From: Cocleimonas flava
GTDB lineage: Bacteria; Pseudomonadota; Gammaproteobacteria; Thiotrichales; Thiotrichaceae
DNA: 64,000 nucleotides
NCBI RefSeq assembly: GCF_004339015.1
Contig: NZ_SMFQ01000003.1
Span: 992,001-1,056,000, forward strand
Reading direction: 5' to 3'
Made by a program: the position numbers and the translations under genes. This document shows positions 23,642-38,079 of this stretch, one piece after another; within the stretch, counting starts at the first letter, position 1; every line of letters starts with the position of its first letter. Under the pieces are notes generated by a model. The model made no database searches. It was not told the origin of the DNA and saw only the letters and a list, made by a program, of their open reading frames with translations.

Positions 23642-26398
23642 TCAAACTGCCGATAATTTCACCGCACAATATTTCACTTCTGCAATTTTCGCGGCAGGAT
23701 CCAAGGCTGCATTGGTCAGCACATTAGCAGCTGCTTCGAAATAACAAAACGGCATAAACACAGTACCAACCGGAGAATTATCGCTAACCTTGATTTTCGC
23801 TTGAAGCTCACCGCGTCTGGTTTCGAGTTTGAGGATATCACCATCCTCTAAACCTAATTTCAACGCATCACTCATATTCACCGAGATCCATGGTTCTGGT
23901 TCCAGGCTGTCTAATACGGTTGCACGGCGCGTCATACTGCCGGTGTGCCAATGTTCTAATTGACGACCTGTGATAAGTACAAAAGGGTATTCTTCATCAG
24001 GTTGCTCATCGGGAGATACGATATCCGCAGGGACTAGTTTTACTTTGCCACTGACTGTGGGGAAATCTTTCTTGAAGATCACGGGCTCACCTGCATCCCC
24101 TTCATTTTCACACGGATAAGTCACACTTTCGTTTTCTAAACGTTCCCAGGTAATACCTGCGATAGAGTCCATTGCCTGTCGCATTTCATTGAAAATATCT
24201 TTCGGCCCCTGGTAGTTCCAATCCAGACCCAGGCGCTTCGCTATTTCCTGGATAATCCACCAGTCCTGTTTTGCTTCTCCTGGAGGATTGATAGCCTGAC
24301 GCCCCATTTGCACAGCACGATCAGAGTTACTATAAGTCCCCGTTTTTTCTGGATTTGCCGCAGCAGGAAGCACAACATCGGCATAGAATGCCGTTTCTGT
24401 CAGGAACAAATCTTGCACCACAAAGTGCTCTAACTTTGCCATTGCCTCACGCGCATGTAACACATCAGGATCAGACATAGCCGGATTCTCACCTTCGACA
24501 TACATCCCTTTGATGATGCCATCGTAGGCAGCATTCATCATCTCGACGGTAGTAATACCCGGCTTGTCATCGAGCGCTTCTACATTCCAGAGTTTTCTAA
24601 AGCGATCTTGATTTTCTTCGAGTGTCACTGGCTGATAGTCTGGGAATACCATAGGAATCAAACCAACATCTGATGCGCCCTGCACATTATTTTGTCCGCG
24701 TAACGGATGTAAGCCTGTACCGTCTCGACCAATTTGCCCTGTGATCATACACAGTGAAATCAAACAACGCGCATTATCGGTGCCATGCACGTGTTGTGAG
24801 ATACCCATACCCCATAGAATCATGGCGTTGTTTGCGTTTGCATACATGCGTGCGACATCACGAATTTGTTCTGCACTAACACCACATATAGGCGACATCA
24901 CCTCTGGCGAATAATCCTGTAGATGTTCTTTTAGTGTTAGGAAATCTTCCGTACGCGTTTCTATAAATTCTTTATCGGTCAGTCCTTCTGTGACAATTAC
25001 ATGCATCATCGCATTGAGTAATGCAACGTCAGATGACGGTTTGAATTGCACATGCTGAGCAGCGTGTCGCTTCATCTCTGAACCACGTGGATCCATTAAA
25101 ATCAACTTCGTACCATTCTTGATGGCGTTCTTCATCCACGTCGCACCCACTGGATGGTTTACCGTTGGATTAGCGCCGATAATGATAATCACATCTGCTT
25201 TTTGCACATCAGCCATTGGGTTTGAAACTGCCCCCGAACCAAAACCTTCCAGCATTGCAGTCACCGAAGAAGCATGACAAAGACGCGTACAATGATCGAC
25301 GTTATTCGTTTGAAAACCGGTGCGGATTAACTTCTGGAAGATATACGCTTCTTCGTTACTACCCTTGGCGGAACCCAATCCTGCGAGTGCATATTTGCCG
25401 TCTTTTGCGATGATTTTCTTTAAACCTTCAGCGGCAAAATCGAGTGCTTCATCCCACGTTGCTTCGCGGAAAATCTCAAAAGGCTTGCCAGGATCAAAAT
25501 CCAGTAAGGCTGTTTTAGGAACATCATCACGACGAATCAAAGGAACCGTAAGTCGTTCTGGACTGTGAATATAATCAAAGCCATAACGACCTTTGACGCA
25601 CAAGCGTCCTTTATTCGCGATTCCATTTCTGCCTTCGACATGCAGAATTTTATTGTCTTTGACGTTGTAAGTCAGCAAACAGCCAACACCACAATAAGGA
25701 CAGACCGAATCGACTTTCTTGTCCGGCACAATCATGCCGACACCGTTAGCGGGCATTAACGCACCCGTAGGACAGGCTTGCACACATTCGCCACAACCAA
25801 CACAGGTACTTTCACCCATGGCATCATCGACATCGAAGACAATTTTTGTTTCGCCGCCGCGTTTTGCCAAACCAATTACATCATTCACTTGCACATCACG
25901 ACAGGCGCGTAAACAACGCGTACAGTGAATACAGGCATCAAGATTTACACCAATAGCCGGGTGTGAGAAGTCATGTTCAACTTTAGTGCGGGATTCAAAA
26001 CGTGATGCTTGTACATCCAGCCTTTTTGACCAGTGCTGTAACTCGTTATCCAGTTTGTATTGCTCTTCTGGCATATCGGCATTGAGTAATTCCAACACCA
26101 TTTTTTGCGCTTTTACTGCACGCTCATTATTTGTTGAAACCTTCATATCCTGACTCGGATTACGACAGCATGAAGGCGCTAAAACTCGTTCTCCATCAAT
26201 CTCAACCATGCAAGCACGACAGTTTCCGACTTCTTCAAGACCATCTTTGTAACACAAGGTTGGAATCTCAACACCGTTGCGCTGGGCTGCTTTTAGGATA
26301 GTTTCGTCTTTATCCGCGGTAATTCTTTTTCCGTTGAGTTCGAATTCGATAGTTGTTTTTGAGCTTGTAGTTGTTGTAGCTGTAGTAGCAGAACTCAT
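23642..26398 (-). CDS. fdsA: NAD-dependent formate dehydrogenase, molybdenum/tungsten alpha subunit (FdsA-type)
   Basis: Catalytic subunit oxidising formate to CO2, cytosolic, 918 residues. A 2Fe-2S ferredoxin domain comes first (CYKDGLEEVGNCRAC, about residues 45-75), then a NuoG-like His/Cys 4Fe-4S segment and two 4Fe-4S motifs (CIHCTRCLRAC and CVGCGECVQAC, residues 150-215), then the 4Fe-4S site CPYCGVGC (near 235) and the molybdopterin domains. The active-site ligand is cysteine, in TRLCHASS near residue 373. The molybdopterin dinucleotide-binding C-terminal domain begins near 800. The start overlaps the stop of the beta subunit gene by ATGA. No fdsC/fdsD accessory gene follows. Confidence 0.93.
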   Translation of the reverse strand: MSSATTATTTTSSKTTIEFELNGKRITADKDETILKAAQRNGVEIPTLCYKDGLEEVGNCRACMVEIDGERVLAPSCCRNPSQDMKVSTNNERAVKAQKMVLELLNADMPEEQYKLDNELQHWSKRLDVQASRFESRTKVEHDFSHPAIGVNLDACIHCTRCLRACRDVQVNDVIGLAKRGGETKIVFDVDDAMGESTCVGCGECVQACPTGALMPANGVGMIVPDKKVDSVCPYCGVGCLLTYNVKDNKILHVEGRNGIANKGRLCVKGRYGFDYIHSPERLTVPLIRRDDVPKTALLDFDPGKPFEIFREATWDEALDFAAEGLKKIIAKDGKYALAGLGSAKGSNEEAYIFQKLIRTGFQTNNVDHCTRLCHASSVTAMLEGFGSGAVSNPMADVQKADVIIIIGANPTVNHPVGATWMKNAIKNGTKLILMDPRGSEMKRHAAQHVQFKPSSDVALLNAMMHVIVTEGLTDKEFIETRTEDFLTLKEHLQDYSPEVMSPICGVSAEQIRDVARMYANANNAMILWGMGISQHVHGTDNARCLISLCMITGQIGRDGTGLHPLRGQNNVQGASDVGLIPMVFPDYQPVTLEENQDRFRKLWNVEALDDKPGITTVEMMNAAYDGIIKGMYVEGENPAMSDPDVLHAREAMAKLEHFVVQDLFLTETAFYADVVLPAAANPEKTGTYSNSDRAVQMGRQAINPPGEAKQDWWIIQEIAKRLGLDWNYQGPKDIFNEMRQAMDSIAGITWERLENESVTYPCENEGDAGEPVIFKKDFPTVSGKVKLVPADIVSPDEQPDEEYPFVLITGRQLEHWHTGSMTRRATVLDSLEPEPWISVNMSDALKLGLEDGDILKLETRRGELQAKIKVSDNSPVGTVFMPFCYFEAAANVLTNAALDPAAKIAEVKYCAVKLSAV

Positions 26399-28092
26399 TT
26401 TGACACCCCCCCACTTTCAGGCACTTTTTTTGTTTTACTGGAGGTTTCATTCGGGAAATAGTTAATCACACTGTTCATAGGATTAGGTGCTGCTTGCCCT
26501 AGACCACAGATCGATGCATCCATCATTACCGTGGATAATTCCCCCATTAACTCAGTATCCCATTCTTCTTGTTGCATTAGTTTTACAGCCTTCTCAGTAC
26601 CGACACGGCAAGGTGTGCATTGCCCACAAGATTCATGTCTGAAGAAATTCATCGCATTGATTGCGGCATCACGGGCTGAATCTTTATCTGATAATACAAT
26701 CACCGCCGCAGAACCGATAAACGCACCGTGCTCATTTAAAGTATCGAAATCTAACGGAATGTCAGCCATGCGTTCGGGCAAAATCCCACCTGAGGCACCA
26801 CCGGGAAAGTAGCCATAGAGTTCCTGACCATCCTGCATCCCACCGCAATATTCATTGACCAATTCACGTAATGTGATGCCAGCTGGCGCCAGATAAACAC
26901 CGGGGTTTTTAACACGCCCGCTAACCGAGAAAGAGCGCAATCCCTGTCTACCATTTTTACCATGTGAGGTAAACCAGTCAGCCCCTTTTTCTACAATTTC
27001 ACGAACCCAGTAAAGCGATTCCATATTGTGTTCAAGCGTTGGGCGACCAAACAAACCGACTTCCGCAAGATACGGTGGACGCAAGCGTGGCATGCCTCGT
27101 TTGCCTTCGATGGATTCGATCATTGCCGATTCTTCACCACAGATATAAGCACCTGCACCTCTGCGTAAATAGATTGGCGGCACGTCTGGAAGTTTGTCTT
27201 TTATAACGGCTAATTCTTGTTCGAGTAATTCTCGTAAGCCTGCATATTCATCACGTAAATAAATGTAGATGGCCGCTGTGCCTACGACTTCAGAAGCAAT
27301 TAACATGCCTTCAAAAAAACGATGTGGATCACGCTCTAAATAATAGCGATCCTTAAACGTACCGGGCTCACCTTCATCGATATTGACTGCCATCAGTCTC
27401 GGTGCGGGTTGTTCCTTAACAATGCGCCATTTACGACCGACAGGAAATCCTGCCCCCCCCAAACCACGCAGACCTGAGTCGTCTTTGGCAGATAGAATAT
27501 CTTCGTGGTGATGCTCTTTCTCTACGACTCGTTTATATAATTCATAGCCTCCGTCTTTTACGTATTGTTCATAACGAATGGCATTTTCTGGCGCTATATC
27601 AGCGGTATTACCTGCTTCAACATCCTCTATGACTTTTTCTGAAGTGGCAAACTGAATAGGTTTAGTGCCGACGACTGCGACAGGTGCTGACTCACAACGG
27701 CCCACACAGGGCACTCGTTGTACGCGTACTTTTTTACCAATTGCAGATTCTAATGTGTCTATTAAAACTTCAGCGCCCGTTAATTCACAACTGATAGAAT
27801 CACACACGCGCACCGTTAGGCTTGCTGGTTTTTGATCGCCTTCTTTGACGATATCAAAGTGATGATAAAAACTCGCAACTTCGTAAACTTCTGTCTGGCT
27901 GATTTTTAATATGGTAGCCAGTGCATGCAGGTGCTCAACGGCTAAACATTGATACTTATCCTGTATCAGGTGTAAATACTCGATCAATAAATCACGCTGC
28001 AAAGGCATGTCTTTTAAAAGAGTCTGAACGTCTAGTAACGCCTCGTTAGATAAAGGACGTCCTCTTCTTTTAATATTTTTTCTCTTTTTCAT
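26395..28092 (-). CDS. fdsB: NAD-dependent formate dehydrogenase, fused gamma-beta subunit (NuoE-NuoF type)
   Basis: Electron-transfer subunit that carries electrons from the alpha subunit to NAD+. Residues 1-165 are a NuoE-like thioredoxin-fold domain with the 2Fe-2S ligands CDSISC and CVGRC. Residues 190-545 are a NuoF-like domain with the FMN/NADH motifs GLRGLGGAGFPVGRKW and GAGAYICGEESAMIES and a 4Fe-4S site in ESCGQCTPC plus a later Cys (ASICGLG). FdsG and FdsB are thus one polypeptide, as in several NAD-linked formate dehydrogenases. The last residues (KKVPESGGVSK) are encoded by a dispersed DNA repeat. The stop overlaps the fdsA start. Confidence 0.93.
   Translation of the reverse strand: MKKRKNIKRRGRPLSNEALLDVQTLLKDMPLQRDLLIEYLHLIQDKYQCLAVEHLHALATILKISQTEVYEVASFYHHFDIVKEGDQKPASLTVRVCDSISCELTGAEVLIDTLESAIGKKVRVQRVPCVGRCESAPVAVVGTKPIQFATSEKVIEDVEAGNTADIAPENAIRYEQYVKDGGYELYKRVVEKEHHHEDILSAKDDSGLRGLGGAGFPVGRKWRIVKEQPAPRLMAVNIDEGEPGTFKDRYYLERDPHRFFEGMLIASEVVGTAAIYIYLRDEYAGLRELLEQELAVIKDKLPDVPPIYLRRGAGAYICGEESAMIESIEGKRGMPRLRPPYLAEVGLFGRPTLEHNMESLYWVREIVEKGADWFTSHGKNGRQGLRSFSVSGRVKNPGVYLAPAGITLRELVNEYCGGMQDGQELYGYFPGGASGGILPERMADIPLDFDTLNEHGAFIGSAAVIVLSDKDSARDAAINAMNFFRHESCGQCTPCRVGTEKAVKLMQQEEWDTELMGELSTVMMDASICGLGQAAPNPMNSVINYFPNETSSKTKKVPESGGVSK
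26404..26431 (+). repeat. C-rich dispersed repeat, copy 9, inside the 3' end of fdsB
   Basis: CACCCCCCC, ACTTT, CAGGCAC, T7, diverged by one base in the core (CACTTT for TACTTT). It lies entirely within the fdsB reading frame and supplies its last residues before the stop at 26395-26397. In the fdsB direction the message reads A7 ... G7. Confidence 0.8.
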
Positions 28093-28392
28093 CTACATCT
28101 CTGCCTTTGTCAAAGCTAAATTAGTTTTATATACATTGTGAACTGTCGGAGGGTAATTCTGAAGTGCGCTAATATTCGAGCGAATTTATCAGTAAATCTA
28201 CCCTTATTATCTTACGAATAATCTAATAAAAATTATCATTTAATAACGATTCCAATCATAGCCGACTATAGCGAAAAACAATCGCATGAATGTTTTAATT
28301 GCGAACATAATAGTTCGATTAACCACCTTAAACTCAAGATGATTAACCGATTCTGGAGAATGCGTTACACAGTAAGAATAACTGTATCGCTA
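28093..28392. other. Intergenic region upstream of fdsB
   Basis: 300 AT-rich bases between frmB and fdsB, both on the minus strand. The right side is the 3' flank of frmB and the left side the leader of fdsB. There is no dispersed repeat, clear hairpin or PHB-type site. The formate dehydrogenase genes therefore probably have their own promoter. Confidence 0.5.
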
Positions 28393-29235
28393 TTAGCTTC
28401 TTAGTTGTTTCTCATGAAATGCTAAGTGTTCACCAATAAATGTAGAGATGAAATGATAGCTATGATCATAACCATCCTGCATTCTCAAGGTAATTGGAAA
28501 ATCTGCCGCATCGCACGCCGCTTGTAAATTCTGAGGATATAATTGATCGGCAAGGAATTCATCATCCAGACCACTATCAATTAACACTGGTAATTTTTCA
28601 GCGCCATTTTTCACTAATTCGGTTGCATCGTATGCGTTCCAGATACTTTTATCATCCCCCAGATACGCACCAAAACAGCCTTCACCCCAAGCGCAATTTA
28701 CGGGATTACAGATAGGTGCAAACGCGGATACTGATTGATACATTCCTGCATTTTTAAACGCACAGATTAACGCGCCGTGACCACCCATTGAATGCCCTGT
28801 TATCGAACGAACGCCAGGAATAATCGGGAAGTTTTGTTCTGCTAACTCGACCAGTTCTTTGGTTACATAATCGTACATCTGATAATTTTTAGACCATGGC
28901 TCTTGTGTTGCATTAACGTAGAAACCAGCACCTTTACCGAGATCATAACGATCTTCTTCATCCGGAACATCATCACCACGAGGACTTGTATCTGGAATAA
29001 TTAAGGCTATGCCCAATTCAGAAGCGTAACGTTGCGCGCCAGCTTTGGTACGAAAGTTATCATCAGTACAGGTTAAACCTGATAACCAGTAAACGGCTGG
29101 CACTTTTTCTGTTTCTGCTAATGGTGGTAAATAAACCGAGAAAGTCATTTCACAGTTACAGCTTGATGATTGATGCGTATAGCGTTTTAAAAAACCACCA
29201 AACTCTTTGACACTTTCAGTTTCTTGAATAGACAT
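28393..29235 (-). CDS. frmB: S-formylglutathione hydrolase FrmB/FghA
   Basis: Hydrolyses S-formylglutathione to formate and glutathione, the second step of glutathione-dependent formaldehyde oxidation. 280 residues, esterase D family: LPPLAETEKVPAVYWLSGLT with the oxyanion motif SGLTCTDDNF, nucleophile elbow GHSMGGHGAL (Ser near residue 147), Asp in DSGLDDEFL and His in DGYDHSYHFI. AAGGAAAT lies upstream of the start. It follows frmA on the same strand with a 124-base gap that holds a dispersed repeat. All catalytic positions are present, so the call is firm. Confidence 0.94.
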   Translation of the reverse strand: MSIQETESVKEFGGFLKRYTHQSSSCNCEMTFSVYLPPLAETEKVPAVYWLSGLTCTDDNFRTKAGAQRYASELGIALIIPDTSPRGDDVPDEEDRYDLGKGAGFYVNATQEPWSKNYQMYDYVTKELVELAEQNFPIIPGVRSITGHSMGGHGALICAFKNAGMYQSVSAFAPICNPVNCAWGEGCFGAYLGDDKSIWNAYDATELVKNGAEKLPVLIDSGLDDEFLADQLYPQNLQAACDAADFPITLRMQDGYDHSYHFISTFIGEHLAFHEKQLRS

Positions 29236-29313
29236 ATTTACTCTATTTCCTTCTTAATTCTTTTGTTATTACATATGTAGATAAACCAGGAGGACGCCAA
29301 TAAATAATAATGG

Positions 29314-29340
29314 CACCCCCCTACTTTGAGGCATTTTTTT
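29314..29340 (+). repeat. C-rich dispersed repeat, copy 10, between frmA and frmB
   Basis: CACCCCC, TACTTT, GAGGCA, T7. The orientation is opposite to frmA and frmB, which share the minus strand, so it sits antisense inside what should be one transcript. Confidence 0.8.
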
Positions 29341-29359
29341 AATTCAATTAGAACTAGAA

Positions 29360-30472
29360 TTAAAACTCAATAACAGAACGAATACTCTCGCCGCTATGCA
29401 TTAAATCAAATGCTCTATTGATGTCTTCTAATGGCATCTTGTGAGTAACCAAACTATCTAGCTCGATCTCTCCTGCCATGTAACGATCAACATAACCCGG
29501 AAGTTCAGTTCTGCCTTTTACACCACCGAATGCCGTTCCCATCCAGGTACGACCAACAACCAGGTTGAATGGACGCGTTTGAATGACCTGACCAGCGCCA
29601 GCTACACCAATTACCACTGACTTACCCCAACCCATGTGCGTACACTCTAGTGCATCACGCATAACGTGGACATTACCAATACACTCGAATGAGTAATCTG
29701 GGCCACCATCAAAGGTATCCTGCATATATTCTACAAAGCCACCTTCTGGAATATCTTTAGGGTTTACAAAATCAGTACAACCTAATTGTTTAGCGAACTC
29801 GAACTTATCAGGGTTGATATCGATACCGATGATACGCTTAGCACCCGCCATTACCGCACCTTGAATACACGATAAACCAATACCACCCAGTCCAAATACT
29901 GCCACGGTAGAGCCTGCTTCAACTTTAGCTGTATTCAGCACAGCGCCGATACCTGTTGTAACACCACAACCTAACAAACAAGCCTTATCCAAAGGTGCGG
30001 CTTTATTTATTTTTGCCAGTGCGATTTCTGGAACAACCGTGTACTCAGAAAACGTCGAACAGCCCATGTAATGGAAGATGTCTTTACCGCCCTGAGAGAA
30101 ACGACGTGTACCATCAGGCATATAACCGGTCCAGATAGTTGGTGCTATTGTCTGACATAAATTCGACTTGGTTGAATTACAGTATTCACAATCACCACAT
30201 TCAGCGATGTAAAGTGGAATTACATGATCACCGACTTCCAGGTTCTTAACTCCGGGACCTAACTCAACAACTTCACAACCCCCTTCGTGTCCTAAAATAC
30301 AAGGAAACGAACCTTCAGGATCATCCCCAGAAAGTGTGAATGCATCGGTATGACATACGCCAGACGCGATGACTTTAAGGAGAACTTCGCCCTCTTTTGG
30401 TCCCATTACTTCTACTTCCTCTATGACTAGAGGCTTTTTTGGTTCCCATGCTACTGCTGCTTTACATTTCAT
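29360..30472 (-). CDS. frmA: S-(hydroxymethyl)glutathione dehydrogenase / class III alcohol dehydrogenase
   Basis: Oxidises the spontaneous formaldehyde-glutathione adduct to S-formylglutathione with NAD+. 370 residues, zinc alcohol dehydrogenase family. Catalytic zinc ligands are in SGVCHTDAF and GHEGG and the later Cys in LGCGVTTG. The structural zinc cluster is in [15 protein letters not shown]. The nucleotide fold is [13 protein letters not shown] followed by GIDINPDKF. Class III features such as [10 protein letters not shown] are present. GGAG lies upstream of the start. It follows the Sco gene by 75 bases on the same strand, so formaldehyde from the upstream MtoX would be handled by the same gene set. 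Confidence 0.95.
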
Positions 30473-30547
30473 TTGAATAATTCTCCGTTTTAAAATGCTA
30501 ATTTAAAATATGTATAGTATGTTTTGACTAAAGATTACAAAAAATCT

Positions 30548-31138
30548 TTAGAGTTTGTTAATTTCGTTTTTTATCACACGTAAAATATGATCTGTCGGTA
30601 GTCCAAAAGGTATGATATTTAATAACTTACCGTCGGCGCCTAAAACGTATAAATTAGCCGAATGGTCTACCAGATAATAATCACTCCCTTTTTTCTTTGA
30701 ATGAATTTTGGTTTGTACCTTATACGCATCAGCAACCGCACTTATTTCATCAATACTCCCTGTAAGCCCAATTAAATCAGGGCTAAAAAAAGGAACATAG
30801 TTTTTCAACTTATCGGGAGTATCACGTTCTGGATCTACCGAAATGAATAATGCGCTCACATTATCAGCATCATCGCCGAGGGATCTTAACACCTTGGCTA
30901 ATGAAGATAACTCGCTTGGGCAAATATCGGGGCAAAAAGTATAACCAAAGAAAATCAATACCAACTTGCCACGTAACTGCTTTAGTTCAAACGGTTTTCC
31001 ATCATGGTCTGTTAACGTAAAGTCACCACCAACACGAGTCGTTTCACTGGCATAAACAATTCCAGTGCCGGATTGTAAAGTCATACTTAAAAGCATGACA
31101 AGTCCTGAAAACCCAAGTTTGTTTAATATGCTCCTCAC
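30548..31138 (-). CDS. SCO1/SenC copper-handling protein
   Basis: Periplasmic thioredoxin-fold copper chaperone of 196 residues with an N-terminal hydrophobic signal or anchor (about residues 8-30). The copper ligands of the family are intact: FCPDICPSE (CxxxC near residue 70) and the His of DHSANLYVLG near 160. It begins with GTG, one base overlapping the TAG of the Sco-MauG gene, with GGAGC 9 bases upstream. SCO1/SenC is a recurring neighbour of mtoX, and copper delivery to the methanethiol oxidase is the likely role (family knowledge plus inference). Confidence 0.92.
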   Translation of the reverse strand: MRSILNKLGFSGLVMLLSMTLQSGTGIVYASETTRVGGDFTLTDHDGKPFELKQLRGKLVLIFFGYTFCPDICPSELSSLAKVLRSLGDDADNVSALFISVDPERDTPDKLKNYVPFFSPDLIGLTGSIDEISAVADAYKVQTKIHSKKKGSDYYLVDHSANLYVLGADGKLLNIIPFGLPTDHILRVIKNEINKL

Positions 31139-33123
31139 TAATTATTTGCTCCATCGTGCGCCCAATTCGGGTCACTATTAGTAAGGTCGCCAATGGGTGC
31201 ATCGAAAGCATCTGACACCAGCATATCGACATTACTTCCGGTTAGTGCTTTCAGGAATGACACCAAATCACTCTGTTCTTGTTCTGATAAACCCAACGGT
31301 GTGATCAACGGATCTAACAGTTTATTTTTCACCCCGCCTTTATTGTAAAAACTGACGACATCATAGAGTGTCTGTAATGAGCCATTGTGCATATATGGTG
31401 CGGTTAAACTAATATTTCGCAGGCTCGGCGTTTTATATTTCCAGCGATCATCCGGGTTTTGTGTTATTTCATATAACCCCGTATCAGCTGCTTTCTTTTC
31501 GCCGACAGAATCCAGTATCGCACTATCAACCTCAACGAATACACCTGGGGCTAAAACAACCCGTTCTGTAACCGGTTTAATACCCATCGCTTCGTTGTAA
31601 CCAATACCGGTGTTATGCAATTTATTGTCGGTAAATAAAGCATGATCTTCACTAATGGTATGGCAGCTACTGCAGCGGCCTTTCCCTGTGAAAATCTGAA
31701 ATCCGCGTTGTGCTTTTTTACTTAAAGCGCCTTCTTGTTTACCAAAGTACCAACGATCAAAGGAAGAGTCTGCAGATACCAATGTTCTCTGATAATCAGC
31801 TAATGCACGACCTAGATTTCGCATATTCACGCCACCGCCATCAAATGCTTTTTCAAACAAACCTTTGTAGTCAGGCATTTGTTTAATCTTATTGATGACA
31901 TGACCAATCGAAGGATTAGACATTTCATTATGTGCTAATAACGGCCCCCATATTTGTTGTTCCAAGGTCTGTTCACGACCATCGTGGAACAGACTAGTGT
32001 TGTAAGCGACATTGTACAAAGTGGGGGAATTACGCCGATGACTTCGACCCTCAATGCCTATTGCCATCGCTAGTTCATTATTGGCAAACCCTTGCTCAGG
32101 GATATGGCAAATAGCGCAAGAAAAAGTATCGTTGAACGATAATCTCCGATCAAAAAACAACCTACGACCTAGCTCTATTTTTTCTGTGGTTAATCGATTA
32201 GTTTCTGGCTCTGGAACTGCTGGTAAACCTAATGGTGGGTTTTTAGCTAATGCCAATAAATCTGCTTTGGCGCCGCGACGTGCGCTGATAGATTTACTTC
32301 GGGTGACATAATCACCTGTTTCGTAGCCGCTTTTGTCATCACCCGGAACAGATAATATGGGAACTAGGTGATTATCTTTTTCTGTATTTTCATTACTCGC
32401 AATCTTGTATGAATCATCTTCCAGAATCAGTGTTTTAATATCCGTTATTATTAAATCAGGATGTAAAAAACCCAGACTATATATATTACGAATTTTTAAT
32501 TTCGGGTCGATCAGAAACACTCTTAATATATGCGAAATATCCCCAGTTTCTTCACCGTTAACGCTCATTTCACGTTGAATATCCTGATTATAATCTTGCA
32601 GGATTGGTTCAAGCGCCGACAAAGAGGACGTCGTTAAAAAACGCCACTCTCCCTTATCACCAGCAAACTTGAAATTTGCTCCGTATAGACGCATTACTTC
32701 GGGCGAATCGTGTTCTGGATCAAAACTCAGGCTGGCTAAACGTAATTTACTCGCAAGCACAGGATCTGTTTTCATTTCTGCTTTTAATTTATAAAAAACA
32801 TAAGAAGCCAAAGGACAGCCATTCACATCTTTACAGTTACTGTAGATAAAACTTAAGAGTGTGTATTTCCCCTCGTAAATATCATGTAACGAATTTTCTC
32901 GACCTTGTTCATCCAGAATTTTACCGTCAGGCGCATTGCCTAATGGTGGAAGTTTATAGCTTCCTGCCGCGGCCATTTTATAGCCTAAAGAACCGTAACC
33001 CGGAGCCAGTGGAATTGTATTATTTATTTTTGATGTAGCATTATTCTCAAGCGATGCAGCACTAATCTCAAACATAGCAAGGAAACAACTAAACAGAATT
33101 ACCCCCGCACTAAATACTTTCAT
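31138..33123 (-). CDS. Sco-like domain fused to MauG-type di-haem peroxidase
   Basis: 661-residue periplasmic protein. After a signal peptide (cleavage probably near ISAAS) comes a Sco/thioredoxin-fold domain (about residues 55-245). Its cysteines are spaced C-x5-C (CKDVNGC) instead of CxxxC, and it has a His in SHILRVFLID. From about residue 280 follows a MauG/cytochrome c peroxidase region with two c-haem motifs, CAICH (near 338) and CSSCH (near 484), and LYNVAYNTSLFHDGREQTLEQQ. mauG and SCO1 homologues are known mtoX neighbours as separate genes; here one is fused. It may mature or activate MtoX. The gene starts 126 bases after mtoX ends and overlaps the next gene by one base. Confidence 0.9.
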   Translation of the reverse strand: MKVFSAGVILFSCFLAMFEISAASLENNATSKINNTIPLAPGYGSLGYKMAAAGSYKLPPLGNAPDGKILDEQGRENSLHDIYEGKYTLLSFIYSNCKDVNGCPLASYVFYKLKAEMKTDPVLASKLRLASLSFDPEHDSPEVMRLYGANFKFAGDKGEWRFLTTSSLSALEPILQDYNQDIQREMSVNGEETGDISHILRVFLIDPKLKIRNIYSLGFLHPDLIITDIKTLILEDDSYKIASNENTEKDNHLVPILSVPGDDKSGYETGDYVTRSKSISARRGAKADLLALAKNPPLGLPAVPEPETNRLTTEKIELGRRLFFDRRLSFNDTFSCAICHIPEQGFANNELAMAIGIEGRSHRRNSPTLYNVAYNTSLFHDGREQTLEQQIWGPLLAHNEMSNPSIGHVINKIKQMPDYKGLFEKAFDGGGVNMRNLGRALADYQRTLVSADSSFDRWYFGKQEGALSKKAQRGFQIFTGKGRCSSCHTISEDHALFTDNKLHNTGIGYNEAMGIKPVTERVVLAPGVFVEVDSAILDSVGEKKAADTGLYEITQNPDDRWKYKTPSLRNISLTAPYMHNGSLQTLYDVVSFYNKGGVKNKLLDPLITPLGLSEQEQSDLVSFLKALTGSNVDMLVSDAFDAPIGDLTNSDPNWAHDGANN

Positions 33124-33248
33124 TGTCTAACACCTTGAATACTGTAATTAAATCGAATCAGTTTTGCCACATGGACAAAACTGATTCTAAAAACCTCACA
33201 GATTATGAGGAGCCAGAAGACTTTATTTTCTTATTATTAAATAACTCA

Positions 33249-34640
33249 TTATTGCTTTGTGATACTGGCTACTTTTTTTACCTCGCTCATTTCTGGCTTC
33301 TTTTTGCTATATAAAGAATAAGCTCCAAAACGCATCTGATGAGCTCTTCCTAATTTTAAGGCATTGAAATCGATACTGAATTTCTCATCCAGCTCTTTTC
33401 CATTCCAGACATAGCTTTTAAAATACTGCGAATTATCATCCCCTTTCTTATCCCAGTTAGCTAACAACGAAGAGGTGTAATAAACTCGTTTTCCATCCCA
33501 GCTAGAAGATGCCATATTCACTTGTTTGTCGATTTGCTTCTCGTAAGTTTGCTTAGGCGCATTGATGTTAGAAAGATCAAAATAACGTGTCTTGCCGTCC
33601 ATAAAGGTATTCACCCAAAGACCTGAATCATCTGATGTCAGAGAGATATCTACCGGTAGTGGAATTTTTGACGCATCACCAATATCTGCCACATCCTTCG
33701 CTTGCCATTCACCTTTATCATCTTCATAGATTAACCAGATTTTTGAGGTTAAAGCTGTGGTAGTTAAACACCAGTTATGATTTGGCTGCCATGCACAACG
33801 AACTTCAAGAGGAGCACCCGGAACATCTAAAACTTTCTTTGGCTTTCTGGTATGCAAATCCCAAATAACCACGGTATTTCCGAAACGTTTCATTGCTTCT
33901 GGATCTTTTACCATTTTACCGAGATCCATCATGTAATTAGACCAACCAGTAAACGATGATGTCACCATTACATTTCGTCTAGGTAAGGCACGTAAGTCGT
34001 AGCCATAACCATCTGCGTACTTTCCAGATTTCTTCGCTCCATTGAGGTTTTCATCCGTTGGCATCCAGTGAGTTGCCACATATTTACCTTCATTGGTGTA
34101 TTCCACCATTGCCGTTCTTCCACCGTGATCAGCATTATTTGATAAACCGGTAACCATCATTCGTCCTGGTAATGCATAAGTTGTATGAGGCCCAACAACG
34201 CCACCACTGGCTGATACAAAATCGGTGATAACCTTGTTCAAAGTTGGTTTGGCAGGATCAGTATGAACATCAAATACAAAGATTTTATTGGTATCTAAAC
34301 CACCTGCCCAAAGGTATTTGCGGTCATCAGTTAAACCAGAGTGATGTGCTTCATTTCGACCACCTACTGAAAGTGTTTCGATAACTTTTCCGTATTTAGG
34401 TGAATTAGGATTAACATCAACAGTAACCAGCTTGTCTTGGCCATCCCCCAAACCTTCAACCCCAAGCGTCCAGATATAAACAAAATCTTCCTGCCCTACG
34501 ATTTTAGCCATATAGGGAGACATACACGTTTCATCGGCTTGTGTTGTAGATACTATTCCACCCACACCCAATAACAATGTTGATATCGTAAACGTTTTAG
34601 CTATATTCTTGCAGATTGGTCCGAAAATATTCCTCTTCAT
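33249..34640 (-). CDS. mtoX: Methanethiol oxidase, SBP56 (selenium-binding protein) family
   Basis: Oxidises methanethiol with O2 to formaldehyde, H2S and H2O2 in the periplasm; family members are copper-dependent. 463 residues, with a signal peptide ending near TTQADE. SBP56 hallmarks are present in order: EAHHSG (near residue 98), VGPHTTYALPG, GYDLRALPRRNVMVTSS, PLEVRCAW, DISLTSDDSGLWVNTF, YYTSSLLANWDK and LGRAHQMRFGAYSLY. AAGGAG lies 6 bases before the start. Downstream are Sco and MauG functions and a full formaldehyde-to-CO2 route, and a TetR gene is divergent, all consistent with MtoX rather than another SBP56 role. Confidence 0.93.
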   Translation of the reverse strand: MKRNIFGPICKNIAKTFTISTLLLGVGGIVSTTQADETCMSPYMAKIVGQEDFVYIWTLGVEGLGDGQDKLVTVDVNPNSPKYGKVIETLSVGGRNEAHHSGLTDDRKYLWAGGLDTNKIFVFDVHTDPAKPTLNKVITDFVSASGGVVGPHTTYALPGRMMVTGLSNNADHGGRTAMVEYTNEGKYVATHWMPTDENLNGAKKSGKYADGYGYDLRALPRRNVMVTSSFTGWSNYMMDLGKMVKDPEAMKRFGNTVVIWDLHTRKPKKVLDVPGAPLEVRCAWQPNHNWCLTTTALTSKIWLIYEDDKGEWQAKDVADIGDASKIPLPVDISLTSDDSGLWVNTFMDGKTRYFDLSNINAPKQTYEKQIDKQVNMASSSWDGKRVYYTSSLLANWDKKGDDNSQYFKSYVWNGKELDEKFSIDFNALKLGRAHQMRFGAYSLYSKKKPEMSEVKKVASITKQ

Positions 34641-34693
34641 TTCTCACTCCTTAGCTGATAAGTTATTCTTCATTTTTATTGTTATTGGCAACT

Positions 34694-34749
34694 TACAAAA
34701 AAATATTTGTAAAATGTTGCTATAATACAAAATAGAATGAATGTTCATT
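34694..34749. promoter_or_regulatory. mtoX-tetR divergent control region
   Basis: AATGAA-TG-TTCATT (34736-34749) is a perfect inverted repeat with a two-base centre, the usual form of a TetR operator. A second inverted repeat TACAAA-N6-TTTGTA lies at 34694-34711. Between them TGCTATAAT (34718-34726) is a good extended -10 for the tetR direction. The repressor could thus control both genes; ligand unknown. Confidence 0.6.
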
Positions 34750-34790
34750 TTTGTCAAATTTTAAAATAGATATAGCGAATAAACTTACAT

Positions 34791-35426
34791 ATGCCCTATT
34801 TAAAAAGAGAAGCCCCAAACCCGGAACCAATTGACTGTAGAATTTTAACTGCAGCGTTGGATTTATTTGTGAACTCTGGTTATCACAACGTATCTGTTCA
34901 TGAAATTCAAAAGCAAGCGGATGTCAGTATTGGTTCAATCTACAAGCACTTTGGTGGTAAAGACGGCATCGCAAAAGCCTTGTATAAACATATACTAAAT
35001 GAAATGGACGAGCTGGTTGATGATGTTATGAATGAACATAAATCACCCAAAAAACAATGCGAAGAAATCATCAGGTTACTGTGCGGATACACCGAAACAC
35101 ATTACGATATTATGGCATTTATATTTCATGCAAAACACACCGAATTTGTCCCGGATGAACCTCTAATTTGTAACACCCTACCCTTTATAAAAATTCGAGA
35201 AATAGTCAAAAGTGGAATGGAATGCGGAGAATTTAGAGAAATTAATTCCTGGGTAGCCGCATCAACAATCTTCGGTGGCGTCATAAGAATGATCCAGCTA
35301 AGACTGGATAATATGATCGAAGAACCATTACCCACTTATTTCGAGACACTCATAGATGCTTCACTAAATGGAGTTCTTACCAGTGATACAACAAAGACTG
35401 ATAATAAGATATCTGCGGTTTTATAA
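34791..35426 (+). CDS. TetR-family regulator of the methanethiol module
   Basis: 211 residues. The N-terminal helix-turn-helix (about residues 17-62) reads ILTAALDLFVNSGYHNVSVH, then ADVSIGSIYKHFGGKDGIAKAL, the standard TetR recognition pattern. The C-terminal ligand domain is less conserved and contains two Cys (CEEIIRLLCGY). The gene diverges from mtoX across 150 bases that contain two inverted repeats, so it most likely represses mtoX and itself, relieved by a C1 or sulphur compound (inference). A dispersed repeat able to form a CCCC/GGGG hairpin with a T-run follows 72 bases after the stop. Confidence 0.88.
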   Translation: MPYLKREAPNPEPIDCRILTAALDLFVNSGYHNVSVHEIQKQADVSIGSIYKHFGGKDGIAKALYKHILNEMDELVDDVMNEHKSPKKQCEEIIRLLCGYTETHYDIMAFIFHAKHTEFVPDEPLICNTLPFIKIREIVKSGMECGEFREINSWVAASTIFGGVIRMIQLRLDNMIEEPLPTYFETLIDASLNGVLTSDTTKTDNKISAVL

Positions 35427-36096: not shown

Positions 36097-38079
36097 ATGT
36101 ATCGCAAACTATTTTTCTTGGCATTCTCGCTTACTCCTTTTTTAGCCAGCGCTTATCCCATTACGTCTTATCTGGAAATGGTGAAAGTTGCCAGCGTGGG
36201 CAGTGCATGGCAAACCTTGGCTTTATCAAATTCTTACAGTAATCCTGTTGTCGCTTGCACCTATAATCTTCCTTCTTCTGCCAGCAACGAGGCTGCAGTT
36301 AGGGTTCAAGTAATTGGCTCAAGCATTCAGGTTAAAATTCAACAGCCTTTAAACTCAACGGCAATTACTGCTTCGGCGGTATATTGCACAATATCACAAG
36401 CTGGTTCTTATACTTATCCGATTAAATATGAAGCACATACAGTAAATTCAACGTTAACAAATTATGGAAGTAACTGGAATGCTACACAAATGGTTAATGT
36501 GTCTTCTAGCCCATATAAAGTGCAAAACTATACTAAGCCAGTCGTTACTGGACAGGTGATGAGTTACAACAATCCTAATTTTTCTGTTTTCTGGAGTAAT
36601 AACTGTGCAAGCCGCTCAACTCCTCCAAGTAATTCTGCTATTTGTGTGGGCAAACATACGGGGCAAACGACACCTACTTCCCCAACTACTGAGATTTTAG
36701 GATATTTCATTGCTGAAGAAGGCGAGTATATTCAAGCTAGTTCCTATGTGAAAATTGCTCTAGGCACCGATACTGTCGCAGGTACTAAAAATACACCACC
36801 TTATAATTATAATCTTGGACAGAATTATACTTACGCAACGGCTACTCAGTCAGCGGAAGACGGCGGAAACGGAAGCTGGGCTGTTCTCTACGGTAGTTCG
36901 CCAGTATCCACACAATTAGGACTTGCGGTTGAAGAGGAAACAGTCACAGGAGATAAATCAAGAACTCATACAAATGAACAAGTAGCCTACTGGGCAATGG
37001 AACCTATCAATAAAACGTACGCTGATCTTAGAATAAATGAAATTCTATACCGTCAAAATGGAACAGTTTTAAGAGAATTCATAGAATTTACTGTATTAAG
37101 TGGTGGCAGTATTCTTAATTATTTAGTCAGTAGTCAGGATGGAACAGGACAAAATTACCGTTTACCAGATATCACCGTCAATACTGGAGATTACGTTATC
37201 CTTCATTCCAATACAGGTACTCCCAGTAGTTCTGGGGGAGTGCATCATGTATATACTGGCAGCACATCAACACCTTTGAATAATACAGCCGATGACGTAG
37301 TCTTGTTAAAACCTTCTGATAGTGATGCAACAACACTTGTAGGATCTGGAACGCATAATGTAATTCCAGTGGATTATGTTTCTTATGGAACTGCCTCAGG
37401 TGTTGATCCTGTACCTGTCAGTAACAATGGGGTCACAGTATCCTGGAATAGTGTTGATAATGCGAGATTAGATGGTGCTGCGTTGGGTCAATCTATAAGC
37501 CTGACGCCAAATGGCGTTGATTCTAATACCAGTGCGTGCTGGGAACTAACAAGCAGTGGGGATGCGAGCGGATGTCCTAGCTATATTATTACATCCGATA
37601 CTGACTCTTCCGCGAATATTAATAGTCAGGGCATGAACAATAATTTAGCGCCGGAAATAAGCTTAACGAAAACAGTAACGACAATTTACGACCCATATAA
37701 TGGCGCGAGTAATCCTAAAGCGATACCGGGCAGTGTACTTGAATACAGCATTACAGCCACAAACGATGGACCTTCGGCCGCCGATAACAACTCCATTAAA
37801 TTATCAGACATCATTCCTGCAAACACTAAACTATGCGTAAGCAATACTGGAAACTGTAGAGCCCCCTATTTTGTTAATGGCTCGCCTTCAAGCGGCTTAA
37901 GCTTAGGAACTGTTACTTATTTAGATAACTCAAATACTGTTATTGCCTCATCGCCTGATTCCGATGGAGCTAACAGCAATGTCGCCAAACTAGAAGCGGC
38001 TATGAATGGAAGTTTTGCTGCTAAAAGCGCTACTACAGGACCTAATTTCAGTCTTAAATTTAGAATAGTTGTTGAATAG
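36097..38079 (+). CDS. Large secreted protein with lamin-tail-like and DUF11-like domains
   Basis: 660 residues, signal peptide cleaved near LASAYP. The first 300 residues are Ser/Asn/Thr-rich with several Cys and no recognised family. Residues 305-440 have the pattern of a lamin-tail (LTD) domain (ADLRINEILYRQNGTVLREFIEF, then NTGDYVILHSN and DDVVLLKPSD). The end (about 515-660) resembles a DUF11/conserved-repeat domain (PGSVLEYSITATNDGPSAADN). Such proteins are usually cell-surface or secreted; a nearby type II secretion operon could export it. Monocistronic, followed by a strong repeat-type terminator. Substrate and role unknown. Confidence 0.75.
   Translation: MYRKLFFLAFSLTPFLASAYPITSYLEMVKVASVGSAWQTLALSNSYSNPVVACTYNLPSSASNEAAVRVQVIGSSIQVKIQQPLNSTAITASAVYCTISQAGSYTYPIKYEAHTVNSTLTNYGSNWNATQMVNVSSSPYKVQNYTKPVVTGQVMSYNNPNFSVFWSNNCASRSTPPSNSAICVGKHTGQTTPTSPTTEILGYFIAEEGEYIQASSYVKIALGTDTVAGTKNTPPYNYNLGQNYTYATATQSAEDGGNGSWAVLYGSSPVSTQLGLAVEEETVTGDKSRTHTNEQVAYWAMEPINKTYADLRINEILYRQNGTVLREFIEFTVLSGGSILNYLVSSQDGTGQNYRLPDITVNTGDYVILHSNTGTPSSSGGVHHVYTGSTSTPLNNTADDVVLLKPSDSDATTLVGSGTHNVIPVDYVSYGTASGVDPVPVSNNGVTVSWNSVDNARLDGAALGQSISLTPNGVDSNTSACWELTSSGDASGCPSYIITSDTDSSANINSQGMNNNLAPEISLTKTVTTIYDPYNGASNPKAIPGSVLEYSITATNDGPSAADNNSIKLSDIIPANTKLCVSNTGNCRAPYFVNGSPSSGLSLGTVTYLDNSNTVIASSPDSDGANSNVAKLEAAMNGSFAAKSATTGPNFSLKFRIVVE

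What the first reader, a model, noticed from the sequence alone, without database searches (positions are those of the whole stretch)
23642..35426. Self-contained methanethiol-to-CO2 module with its own regulator
Seven minus-strand genes in order encode MtoX (SBP56), a Sco-MauG fusion, Sco, formaldehyde-glutathione dehydrogenase, S-formylglutathione hydrolase, and a two-subunit NAD-linked formate dehydrogenase; a TetR gene diverges from mtoX. Known biology: MtoX yields formaldehyde, H2S and H2O2, and mtoX often neighbours SCO1/senC and mauG. Linking the complete formaldehyde and formate dissimilation route directly behind it makes one island that would extract all reducing power from the methyl group. 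I do not recall this full arrangement as a described unit. No catalase or sulphide:quinone reductase gene is inside, so H2O2 and H2S must be handled elsewhere.
Basis: partly seen in the sequence, partly recalled or inferred. Interest (0 to 1): 0.8.

Follow-up and report, generated by a model that had tools for sequence, protein, structure and literature searches.

The report
TetR-controlled methanethiol and formaldehyde oxidation operon
A relative of the sulfur-oxidising bacterium Cocleimonas carries one gene run that would strip the methyl group off methanethiol and burn it to CO2, and its switch belongs to a regulator family that in many related bacteria sits on formaldehyde genes in general, so the switch probably responds to formaldehyde rather than to methanethiol itself.

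Summary
In detail: seven same-strand genes encode MtoX, a Sco-MauG fusion, Sco, FrmA, FrmB and a two-subunit formate dehydrogenase, with a divergent TetR gene. The formate dehydrogenase is of the Methylorubrum FDH1 kind, not FdsABG. In the loci examined, the complete order occurs only in the window's own genus; mtoX-scoMauG-sco-frmAB recurs in Sedimenticola and Thiodiazotropha relatives.

The new result is the regulator. A palindrome, AGAATGAAYRTTCATTCT, lies inside the -35/-10 spacer of the mtoX promoter; 34 of 37 distinct tetR-mtoX intergenic regions carry an exact core site. In 369 class genomes the core occurs at 24 places, 17 of them before formaldehyde-making or -using genes (mtoX, frmA, gfa, gfa-like, xoxF-like). 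Twelve of 13 genomes with a close TetR relative have the site, against 5 of 356 others; mtoX was found in only 4 of the 13. So this looks like a formaldehyde regulon into which mtoX has been drawn, not an mtoX-specific switch. The effector (formaldehyde, perhaps through Pro2/Cys16) is inferred. Nothing has been measured.

The parts
34791..35426 (+). TetR-family regulator, 211 aa, N-terminus MPYLKREAPNPEPIDCRIL
   Evidence: AlphaFold2 model mean pLDDT 89.1; TetR fold
34729..34757 (-). predicted mtoX promoter with operator AAAATGAACATTCATTCT in the 17-bp spacer between TTGACA and TATTTT
   Evidence: exact core in 34 of 37 tetR-mtoX intergenic regions
33249..34640 (-). mtoX, methanethiol oxidase (SBP56), apparent signal peptide, TCMSPYM
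33155..33210 (-). two hairpins between mtoX and the Sco-MauG gene, possible partial terminator or attenuator
31138..33123 (-). Sco-MauG fusion, di-haem (CAICH, CSSCH), putative MtoX maturation protein
30548..31138 (-). Sco copper chaperone, FCPDIC motif, GTG start
29360..30472 (-). frmA, S-(hydroxymethyl)glutathione dehydrogenase
   Evidence: the only one over the cut-off in the genome
28393..29235 (-). frmB, S-formylglutathione hydrolase
28315..28350 (-). hairpin between frmB and the FDH genes, terminator-like
26395..28092 (-). formate dehydrogenase beta subunit (fused NuoE-like and NuoF-like domains), FDH1 type
23642..26398 (-). formate dehydrogenase alpha subunit, FDH1 type; the only one over the TIGR01591 cut-off in the genome

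Best explanation
The run is a C1 operon read mainly from the mtoX promoter. MtoX, matured by Sco and Sco-MauG, releases formaldehyde from methanethiol, probably in the periplasm. FrmA and FrmB carry the formaldehyde through glutathione adducts to formate, and an FDH1-type formate dehydrogenase takes it to CO2 and NADH. The divergent TetR represses the operon by sitting in the -35/-10 spacer of the mtoX promoter. This TetR is the local member of a wider regulator clade whose sites lie mostly before genes that make or use formaldehyde, so its release signal is most likely formaldehyde or its glutathione adduct, which would make a positive loop once methanethiol turnover starts. Shown: genes, families, operator conservation, regulator-operator co-occurrence. 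Inferred: repression, a single transcript, the effector, enzyme activities, cell compartments.
For: Genes. Operator inside the promoter. Exact core in 34 of 37 distinct tetR-mtoX, 9 of 10 tetR-frmA and 4 of 4 tetR-xoxF-like intergenic regions (TetR of 47% identity or more). Class scan: 24 distinct places in 17 of 369 genomes, reversed control 0; following genes frmA 6, mtoX 4, gfa 4, gfa-like 2, aioBA-like 2, xoxF-like 1, moaA 1, beside a distant TetR paralogue 3, none evident 1. TetR (46% identity or more) and operator co-occur in 12 of 13 against 5 of 356 genomes, Fisher p 7e-18; taking every TetR hit to E 1e-25 it is 16 of 35 against 1 of 334. mtoX was not found in 9 of the 13. Of 14 loci with the TetR or operator and both mtoX and frmA, 9 have a second exact operator ahead of the frmA unit; L025/L263 has a third 132 nt before an FDH-beta-like gene. 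The clade L003, L005, L139 (support 100/99) shares the altered site AGTGAAG(G/C)TTCATT whether the target is mtoX or frmA.
Against: G011 has the complete gene order but no such TetR (to E 1e-15) and no site within 4 mismatches in its locus. frmAB-FDH runs without a detected mtoX exist in G009 and G010, genomes 89 and 92% complete. Terminator-like hairpins lie after mtoX and after frmB, and in L036 and L038, where frmA follows sco as in the window, frmA still has its own site, so one transcript is not certain. The window operator departs once from the 18-bp palindrome. No expression or binding data exist. Some sites precede genes with no clear formaldehyde role (aioBA-like, moaA, a FIST gene). 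The pattern was drawn in part from genomes that recur in the class test (G000, G383, G188; without G000 and G383 it is 10 of 11). In the relatives frmA goes with mtoX only weakly (7 of 9 against 24 of 48, p 0.16), FDH more clearly (7 of 9 against 10 of 48, p 0.002).
Confidence: 0.63

Rival explanations
1. Dedicated methanethiol island: TetR senses methanethiol or its sulfur product (sulfane sulfur) and the downstream genes follow.
For: Cys127 in the effector domain is kept in 39 of 40 mtoX-linked regulators of the 65-row ingroup but in 15 of 25 others (Fisher p 0.00015); mtoX is the promoter-proximal gene in the window.
Against: 9 of 13 class genomes have the regulator and the site but no detected mtoX; among relatives the regulator lies beside frmA or xoxF-like genes in 11 of 17 cases. 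On independent pairs the Cys127 link points one way but is not significant (median p 0.25). One probably mtoX-linked row (L225) lacks Cys127.
Confidence: 0.2
2. Two inputs: an N-terminal Pro2/Cys16 site for formaldehyde and Cys127 for a thiol or sulfane signal, with each lost where its target gene is not under control.
For: Cys16 is kept in 27 of 27 ingroup rows with frmA in the locus and in 23 of 38 others (p 0.00015); Cys127 as above.
Against: Cys16 changes are few events (5 on the tree), and independent pairs give no significance. Locus length limits the label 'frmA in locus'.
Confidence: 0.15
3. Neighbours only: frmAB-FDH are housekeeping detoxification genes with their own promoters, placed behind mtoX by chance or selfish clustering.
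For: Hairpins at 33155-33210 and 28315-28350; G009 and G010 carry frmAB-FDH without a detected mtoX; G026 has mtoX, frmA and FDH on three contigs; in L036 and L038 frmA follows sco but has its own site.
Against: The 64-kb window holds no second site within 4 mismatches of the 18-mer, so if frmAB-FDH are under this regulator at all it is through the mtoX promoter; the order recurs in the genus.
Confidence: 0.17
4. TetR is a fatty-acid or solvent-type regulator (FadR-like) that happens to lie here.
For: FadR proteins hold most of ranks 2 to 9 among the fold matches.
Against: No lipid gene was seen among the first genes after the 24 operator places.
Confidence: 0.04

Closest known systems
mtoX-SCO1/senC-mauG operon (Eyice et al. 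2017, PMC5739008, passages read)
   Same: MtoX with Sco and MauG functions, including the fusion as in Methylophaga thiooxydans; transcription raised by methanethiol in Ruegeria. The same paper recalls that an SBP56 gene lies near formate dehydrogenase genes in Methanococcus (Self et al. 2004), an earlier hint at a C1 link
   Different: An IclR regulator lies upstream in Ruegeria; no frmAB in the unit in the passages read; here TetR plus the whole formaldehyde and formate route
frmRAB of E. coli with FrmR (PMC5146963, passages)
   Same: A repressor controlling frmA and frmB; an N-terminal proline and a cysteine as candidates
   Different: FrmR is of the RcnR/CsoR family; here TetR fold, and mtoX and FDH join the unit
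HxlR, NmlR/AdhR, TtmR, FlhRS (PMC8879981 Table 5 and passages; PMC4776306, passages)
   Same: Regulators of formaldehyde metabolism; HxlR reacts through a cysteine in its first helix
   Different: No regulator in that Table 5 is described as a TetR in the passages I saw; the regulon content differs
FDH1 of Methylorubrum extorquens (7vw6; organism recalled)
   Same: Two subunits, fused beta, matches of 1242 and 686 bits over most of the length
   Different: Set behind mtoX-frmAB; metal unknown here

Membership tests
Methanethiol oxidase MtoX (NF052453) | Score over the curated cut-off of 650 bits | tested here: met
   782.3 bits
Methanethiol oxidase MtoX (NF052453) | Copper-ligand histidines conserved with 2ECE | tested here: met
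   EAHHSG, PHTTY and RAHQ align with ELHHFG, LHTVH and RSHQ of 2ECE; ligand roles from PMC5739008 passages, matched by eye
Methanethiol oxidase MtoX (NF052453) | Reactive cysteine in T-C-x-S-P-Y-M | tested here: met
   TCMSPYM; motif TCQSPYM in PMC10936201 section 9
Methanethiol oxidase MtoX (NF052453) | Methanethiol oxidase activity | not testable with these tools
   needs an assay
MauG or MbnH proper | Score over the cut-offs of TIGR03791 or TIGR04039 | tested here: not met
   215.5 against 443.85 and 251.2 against 362.85; so only 'di-haem CCP/MauG-like', PF03150 met
GSH-dependent formaldehyde pathway FrmA/FrmB | Equivalog cut-offs TIGR02818 and TIGR02821 | tested here: met
   616.9 against 543.95 and 397.9 against 281.7
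FDH1-type NAD formate dehydrogenase | Alpha with Fer2, Fer4 and molybdopterin domains; beta with fused NuoE-like and NuoF-like domains | tested here: met
FDH1-type NAD formate dehydrogenase | Tungsten instead of molybdenum | not testable with these tools
   metal cannot be read from sequence here
FdsABG formate dehydrogenase | Separate gamma subunit and best match to FdsA | tested here: not met
   beta is fused; 6tg9 alpha 579 bits against 7vw6 1242
Known formaldehyde repressors FrmR (CsoR/RcnR) and HxlR (MarR) | Their fold | tested here: not met
   TetR_N domain and TetR fold
Formaldehyde-responsive regulator (works like) | Release from DNA by formaldehyde | not testable with these tools
   supported only by regulon content

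The most novel reading that the evidence does not exclude
A TetR-fold formaldehyde sensor, built independently of FrmR and HxlR, reads formaldehyde through its N-terminal proline and Cys16 at the start of the first helix. It runs a transferable C1 regulon (mtoX, frmAB, gfa, xoxF-like, FDH) in sulfur-oxidising gammaproteobacteria, so that methanethiol degradation is switched on by its own product, with Cys127 adding a sulfur input where mtoX is a target.
Probability: 0.3. Interest if true: 0.78.

Novelty: new variant of a known kind. Interest (0 to 1): 0.6.

Why it matters
Methanethiol is a central intermediate of marine sulfur cycling, and how bacteria couple its oxidation to handling of the toxic formaldehyde is little known outside methylotrophs (my own knowledge). 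If right, this gives a regulator, a precise operator sequence and a list of target genes that can be tested at once. It also gives a sequence marker for finding C1 regulons in sulfur-oxidising bacteria and lucinid symbionts (Thiodiazotropha), and it would add the TetR fold to the folds known to control formaldehyde genes.

Tried and rejected
Cys127 and Cys16 as proof of two sensory inputs: Fisher tests are small (1.5e-4 each) but treat related rows as independent; independent pairs are not significant. Kept only as a rival and as part of the bold reading. In one search I first had 41 of 41 mtoX-linked rows with Cys127. The sequence printed then showed that L225, cut by a contig end, is probably mtoX-linked too and lacks it, so one search counts it as linked. 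Fifteen distant rows were dropped from the 80, among them two mtoX-linked ones (L021, L177) that do have Cys127. L010 was counted as without frmA because its frmA is on another contig.

The 46% identity line in the class test was drawn after seeing the hits (next lower 43%), so the looser count is given too. The distant TetR of G376 (46%) counts among the 13 there but not.

A second operator in the window's genome: the next best site (C3:174950) sits in what I read as a terminator-like hairpin. With 3 mismatches the pattern gives 108 hits per strand against 60 for the control, so weak hits say nothing.

'frmA has its own operator only where it is split off': dropped on recount, because L036 and L038 have a site in the sco-frmA gap and L266 has none although tlpA lies between. 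For this I lowered the main confidence from 0.66 to 0.63 and raised the neighbours-only rival from 0.15 to 0.17.

Hairpin after mtoX: 34 of 89 gaps have a stem reached by at most 1% of shuffles (letters shuffled singly). Real in many lineages but not universal, and absent in L003 and L005.

H2O2 problem: rejected as a necessary gap, see PMC10936201.

Not examined: where methanethiol comes from, catalase, and sulfide or sulfane oxidation in this genome.

Literature: I saw no TetR regulator of frmA or mtoX among the titles and abstract starts listed (one search lists 20 of 67 papers, 10 of 78, 8 of 9). The library lacks most subscription papers. Only the passages or sections named in the report were read.
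Full report
What is there. The seven minus-strand genes run mtoX, a Sco-MauG fusion, sco, frmA, frmB, FDH beta, FDH alpha; tetR diverges from mtoX. MtoX scores 782 bits against a 650 cut-off and aligns with solved SBP56 2ECE at its histidines. The fusion has two CxxCH motifs but stays under the cut-offs of both MauG and MbnH models, so it should be called di-haem CCP/MauG-like. The formate dehydrogenase matches the FDH1 structures (7vw6, 7e5z) over most of its length at 1242 bits (alpha) and 686 bits (beta), with the FdsA-type 6tg9 far behind at 579; it is not fdsAB. MtoX and the fusion begin with what look like signal peptides (my reading, no predictor was run), so methanethiol would be split in the periplasm and formaldehyde handled in the cytoplasm. 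A passage of PMC6548844 places MtoX in the periplasm of Methylophaga.

Where it occurs. The nearest named record is an uncultured Cocleimonas (L012, MtoX 95% identical); its contig has the same length as that of G007, a genome of the window's genus. The complete order is in the window, in G007 and in G011, and the broken contigs of G008 fit it. In G022 and G028 the FDH pair lies upstream of tetR while frmAB follow sco; in G028 the frmAB part is on another contig. Among the 80 mtoX loci (the best 80 of 188, so the closest MtoX relatives), 50 have 6 kb or more downstream: 46 carry the fusion and 7 carry frmA on the same strand within 6 kb. The full arrangement is thus rare, and mtoX-frmAB is a recurrent minority. 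In G009 and G010 (89 and 92% complete) an frmA-frmB-FDH run exists with no mtoX found. In G010, and in G001 (frmA-frmB only), the same kind of TetR diverges directly from frmA. In 57 relatives, frmA (over cut-off) accompanies mtoX in 7 of 9 against 24 of 48 genomes without mtoX (p 0.16), and FDH in 7 of 9 against 10 of 48 (p 0.002). The 9 include a cut-off fragment in G008 and leave out a weak 107-bit hit in G054.

The operator. The predicted mtoX promoter (TTGACA, 17, TATTTT) holds AAAATGAACATTCATTCT in its spacer. Promoter-like matches as such are no more frequent here than in shuffles (22 against 33.6), so the case rests on conservation. Setting out the tetR-mtoX intergenic regions showed the same palindrome, AGAATGAAYRTTCATTCT, in the same promoter frame. 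Counted without duplicates, and for TetR of 47% identity or more, the best core site (AATGAAYRTTCRTTCTA) is exact in 34 of 37 tetR-mtoX regions, 9 of 10 tetR-frmA regions and 4 of 4 tetR-xoxF-like regions. The departures include L003, L005 and L139, whose sites share AGTGAAG(G/C)TTCATT although the target is mtoX in two and frmA in the third; their regulators form one clade (100/99). This looks like regulator and site changing together.

A class-wide scan. In 369 genomes drawn across the class, the exact core occurs 25 times at 24 distinct places in 17 genomes; the pattern read backwards occurs in none. Under uniform base composition about one hit would be expected. The genes that follow: frmA 6, mtoX 4, S-(hydroxymethyl)glutathione synthase 4, another GFA-domain gene 2, a methanol/ethanol-type PQQ dehydrogenase (XoxF-like) 1, an arsenite-oxidase-like pair 2, moaA 1, a site beside a distant TetR paralogue 3, and 1 with only a FIST gene. 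mtoX and frmA were recognised by tblastn with the window's proteins. Of the other kinds one member each was scanned against Pfam and NCBIfam (two of the synthases: L151, L167); the rest (L152, L161, L162, L166) were assigned by likeness of their translations. So 17 of 24 make or use formaldehyde, judged by family. TetR relatives of 46% identity or more are in 13 of the 369; 12 of these have the site against 5 of the other 356 (p 7e-18). With every TetR hit to E 1e-25 it is 16 of 35 against 1 of 334. Of the five, three hold the distant paralogue, G188 has sites before mtoX, frmA and gfa with one at a contig end, and G239 is unexplained. The pattern came in part from G000, G383 and G188; without the first two it is 10 of 11. 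mtoX was found in 33 of 369 genomes (E 1e-100) and in 4 of the 13. Among the relatives, 17 ingroup TetR genes have as nearest identified divergent gene mtoX (6), frmA (8) or xoxF-like (3), all within about 1.6 kb; G026 counts twice.

Co-regulation when split. Of 14 loci that have the TetR or operator and both mtoX and frmA (window included), 9 have a second exact operator ahead of the frmA unit: six in front of a tlpA gene that precedes frmA, three (L036, L038, L286) directly before frmA. The other 5 (window, L095, L258, L266, L096) have none. L025/L263 has a third, 132 nt ahead of an FDH-beta-like gene only 30% identical to the window's. Four mtoX-frmA loci without this TetR (L061, L073, L074, L077) have none. 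So control of frmA by the same regulator is conserved even where frmA is a unit of its own. In the window, L095, L258 and L096 frmA follows sco with no site of its own, which fits read-through from mtoX; but L036 and L038 have the same order and do have a site, and hairpins stand at 33155-33210 and 28315-28350. A stem reached by at most 1% of shuffles is present in 34 of 89 mtoX-fusion gaps, so partial termination giving more MtoX than maturation protein is possible.

The regulator. AlphaFold2 gives a confident TetR fold (mean pLDDT 89.1, first ten residues 85) with FadR proteins among the best matches. Most of the 65-row ingroup carries an N-terminal MPYLK...PEPIDCRIL (Pro2 in 55, Cys16 in 50); none of the 15 distant rows has Cys16. 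Pro2 and a cysteine at the start of helix 1 recall FrmR, which bridges Pro2 and Cys35 (PMC5146963, passages), and HxlR, which reacts through a cysteine in its first helix (PMC8879981, passages). Cys16 is kept in 27 of 27 rows with frmA in the locus and 23 of 38 others; Cys127 in 39 of 40 mtoX-linked rows and 15 of 25 others. Both fail to reach significance on independent pairs. I treat these as leads.

Against the reading. G011 has the operon without the regulator or site. No paper or data seen here shows binding or induction. Some targets (arsenite-oxidase-like, moaA) have no evident link with formaldehyde, although moaA would serve a molybdopterin FDH.

What is known. The mtoX-SCO1-mauG unit, including the fusion, is in PMC5739008 (passages), which also recalls an SBP56 gene near formate dehydrogenase genes in Methanococcus. 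Two mtoX clusters of Methylophaga with sco1/mauG, tlpA, pdo, sqrB, sulP and cysC are named in a supplement legend of PMC6548844 (passages). The formaldehyde regulators listed in Table 5 of PMC8879981 include none described as a TetR in the passages read. My searches for a TetR with frmA or mtoX and for this island showed none among the papers listed, in a library that lacks most subscription journals.

Verdict. But the switch belongs to a wider regulon that is mostly about formaldehyde, and that is the more useful finding.

Noticed in passing
L149 and L162 (G262, G145): The same operator lies ahead of an arsenite-oxidase-like small/large subunit pair (TIGR02694, TIGR02693 for L149; L162 by likeness); in both genomes the TetR sits beside a GFA-domain gene. 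Substrate of that enzyme unknown.
   Followed up: partly
L270, L274, L283: A TetR of the same clade, with Cys16 replaced and no operator nearby, lies behind what read as metK, ahcY and metF genes, a methyl-cycle setting (names from my reading of the translations).
   Followed up: no
L140, L143, L144, L158: Distant TetR paralogues have sites like AGAACGAACGTTCGTTCT just beside or behind their own gene, in L140 and L158 next to an AGGAGG.
   Followed up: no
window 33155-33210 and many mtoX loci: Strong but unlike-sequence hairpins recur between mtoX and the Sco-MauG gene (34 of 89 gaps), perhaps setting the ratio of enzyme to maturation protein.
   Followed up: partly
L165 (G044): The operator core lies 130 bp upstream of moaA, the first step of molybdopterin synthesis that formate dehydrogenase needs; no TTGACA is seen there.
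   Followed up: no
window 31138-33123: The Sco half of the fusion has NCKDVNGC, a CX5C, in place of the usual CX3C copper motif (recalled), which the separate Sco keeps (FCPDIC).
   Followed up: no
window 36097-38079: A 660-aa protein with weak lamin-tail and DUF11 matches follows tetR; function unknown.
   Followed up: no
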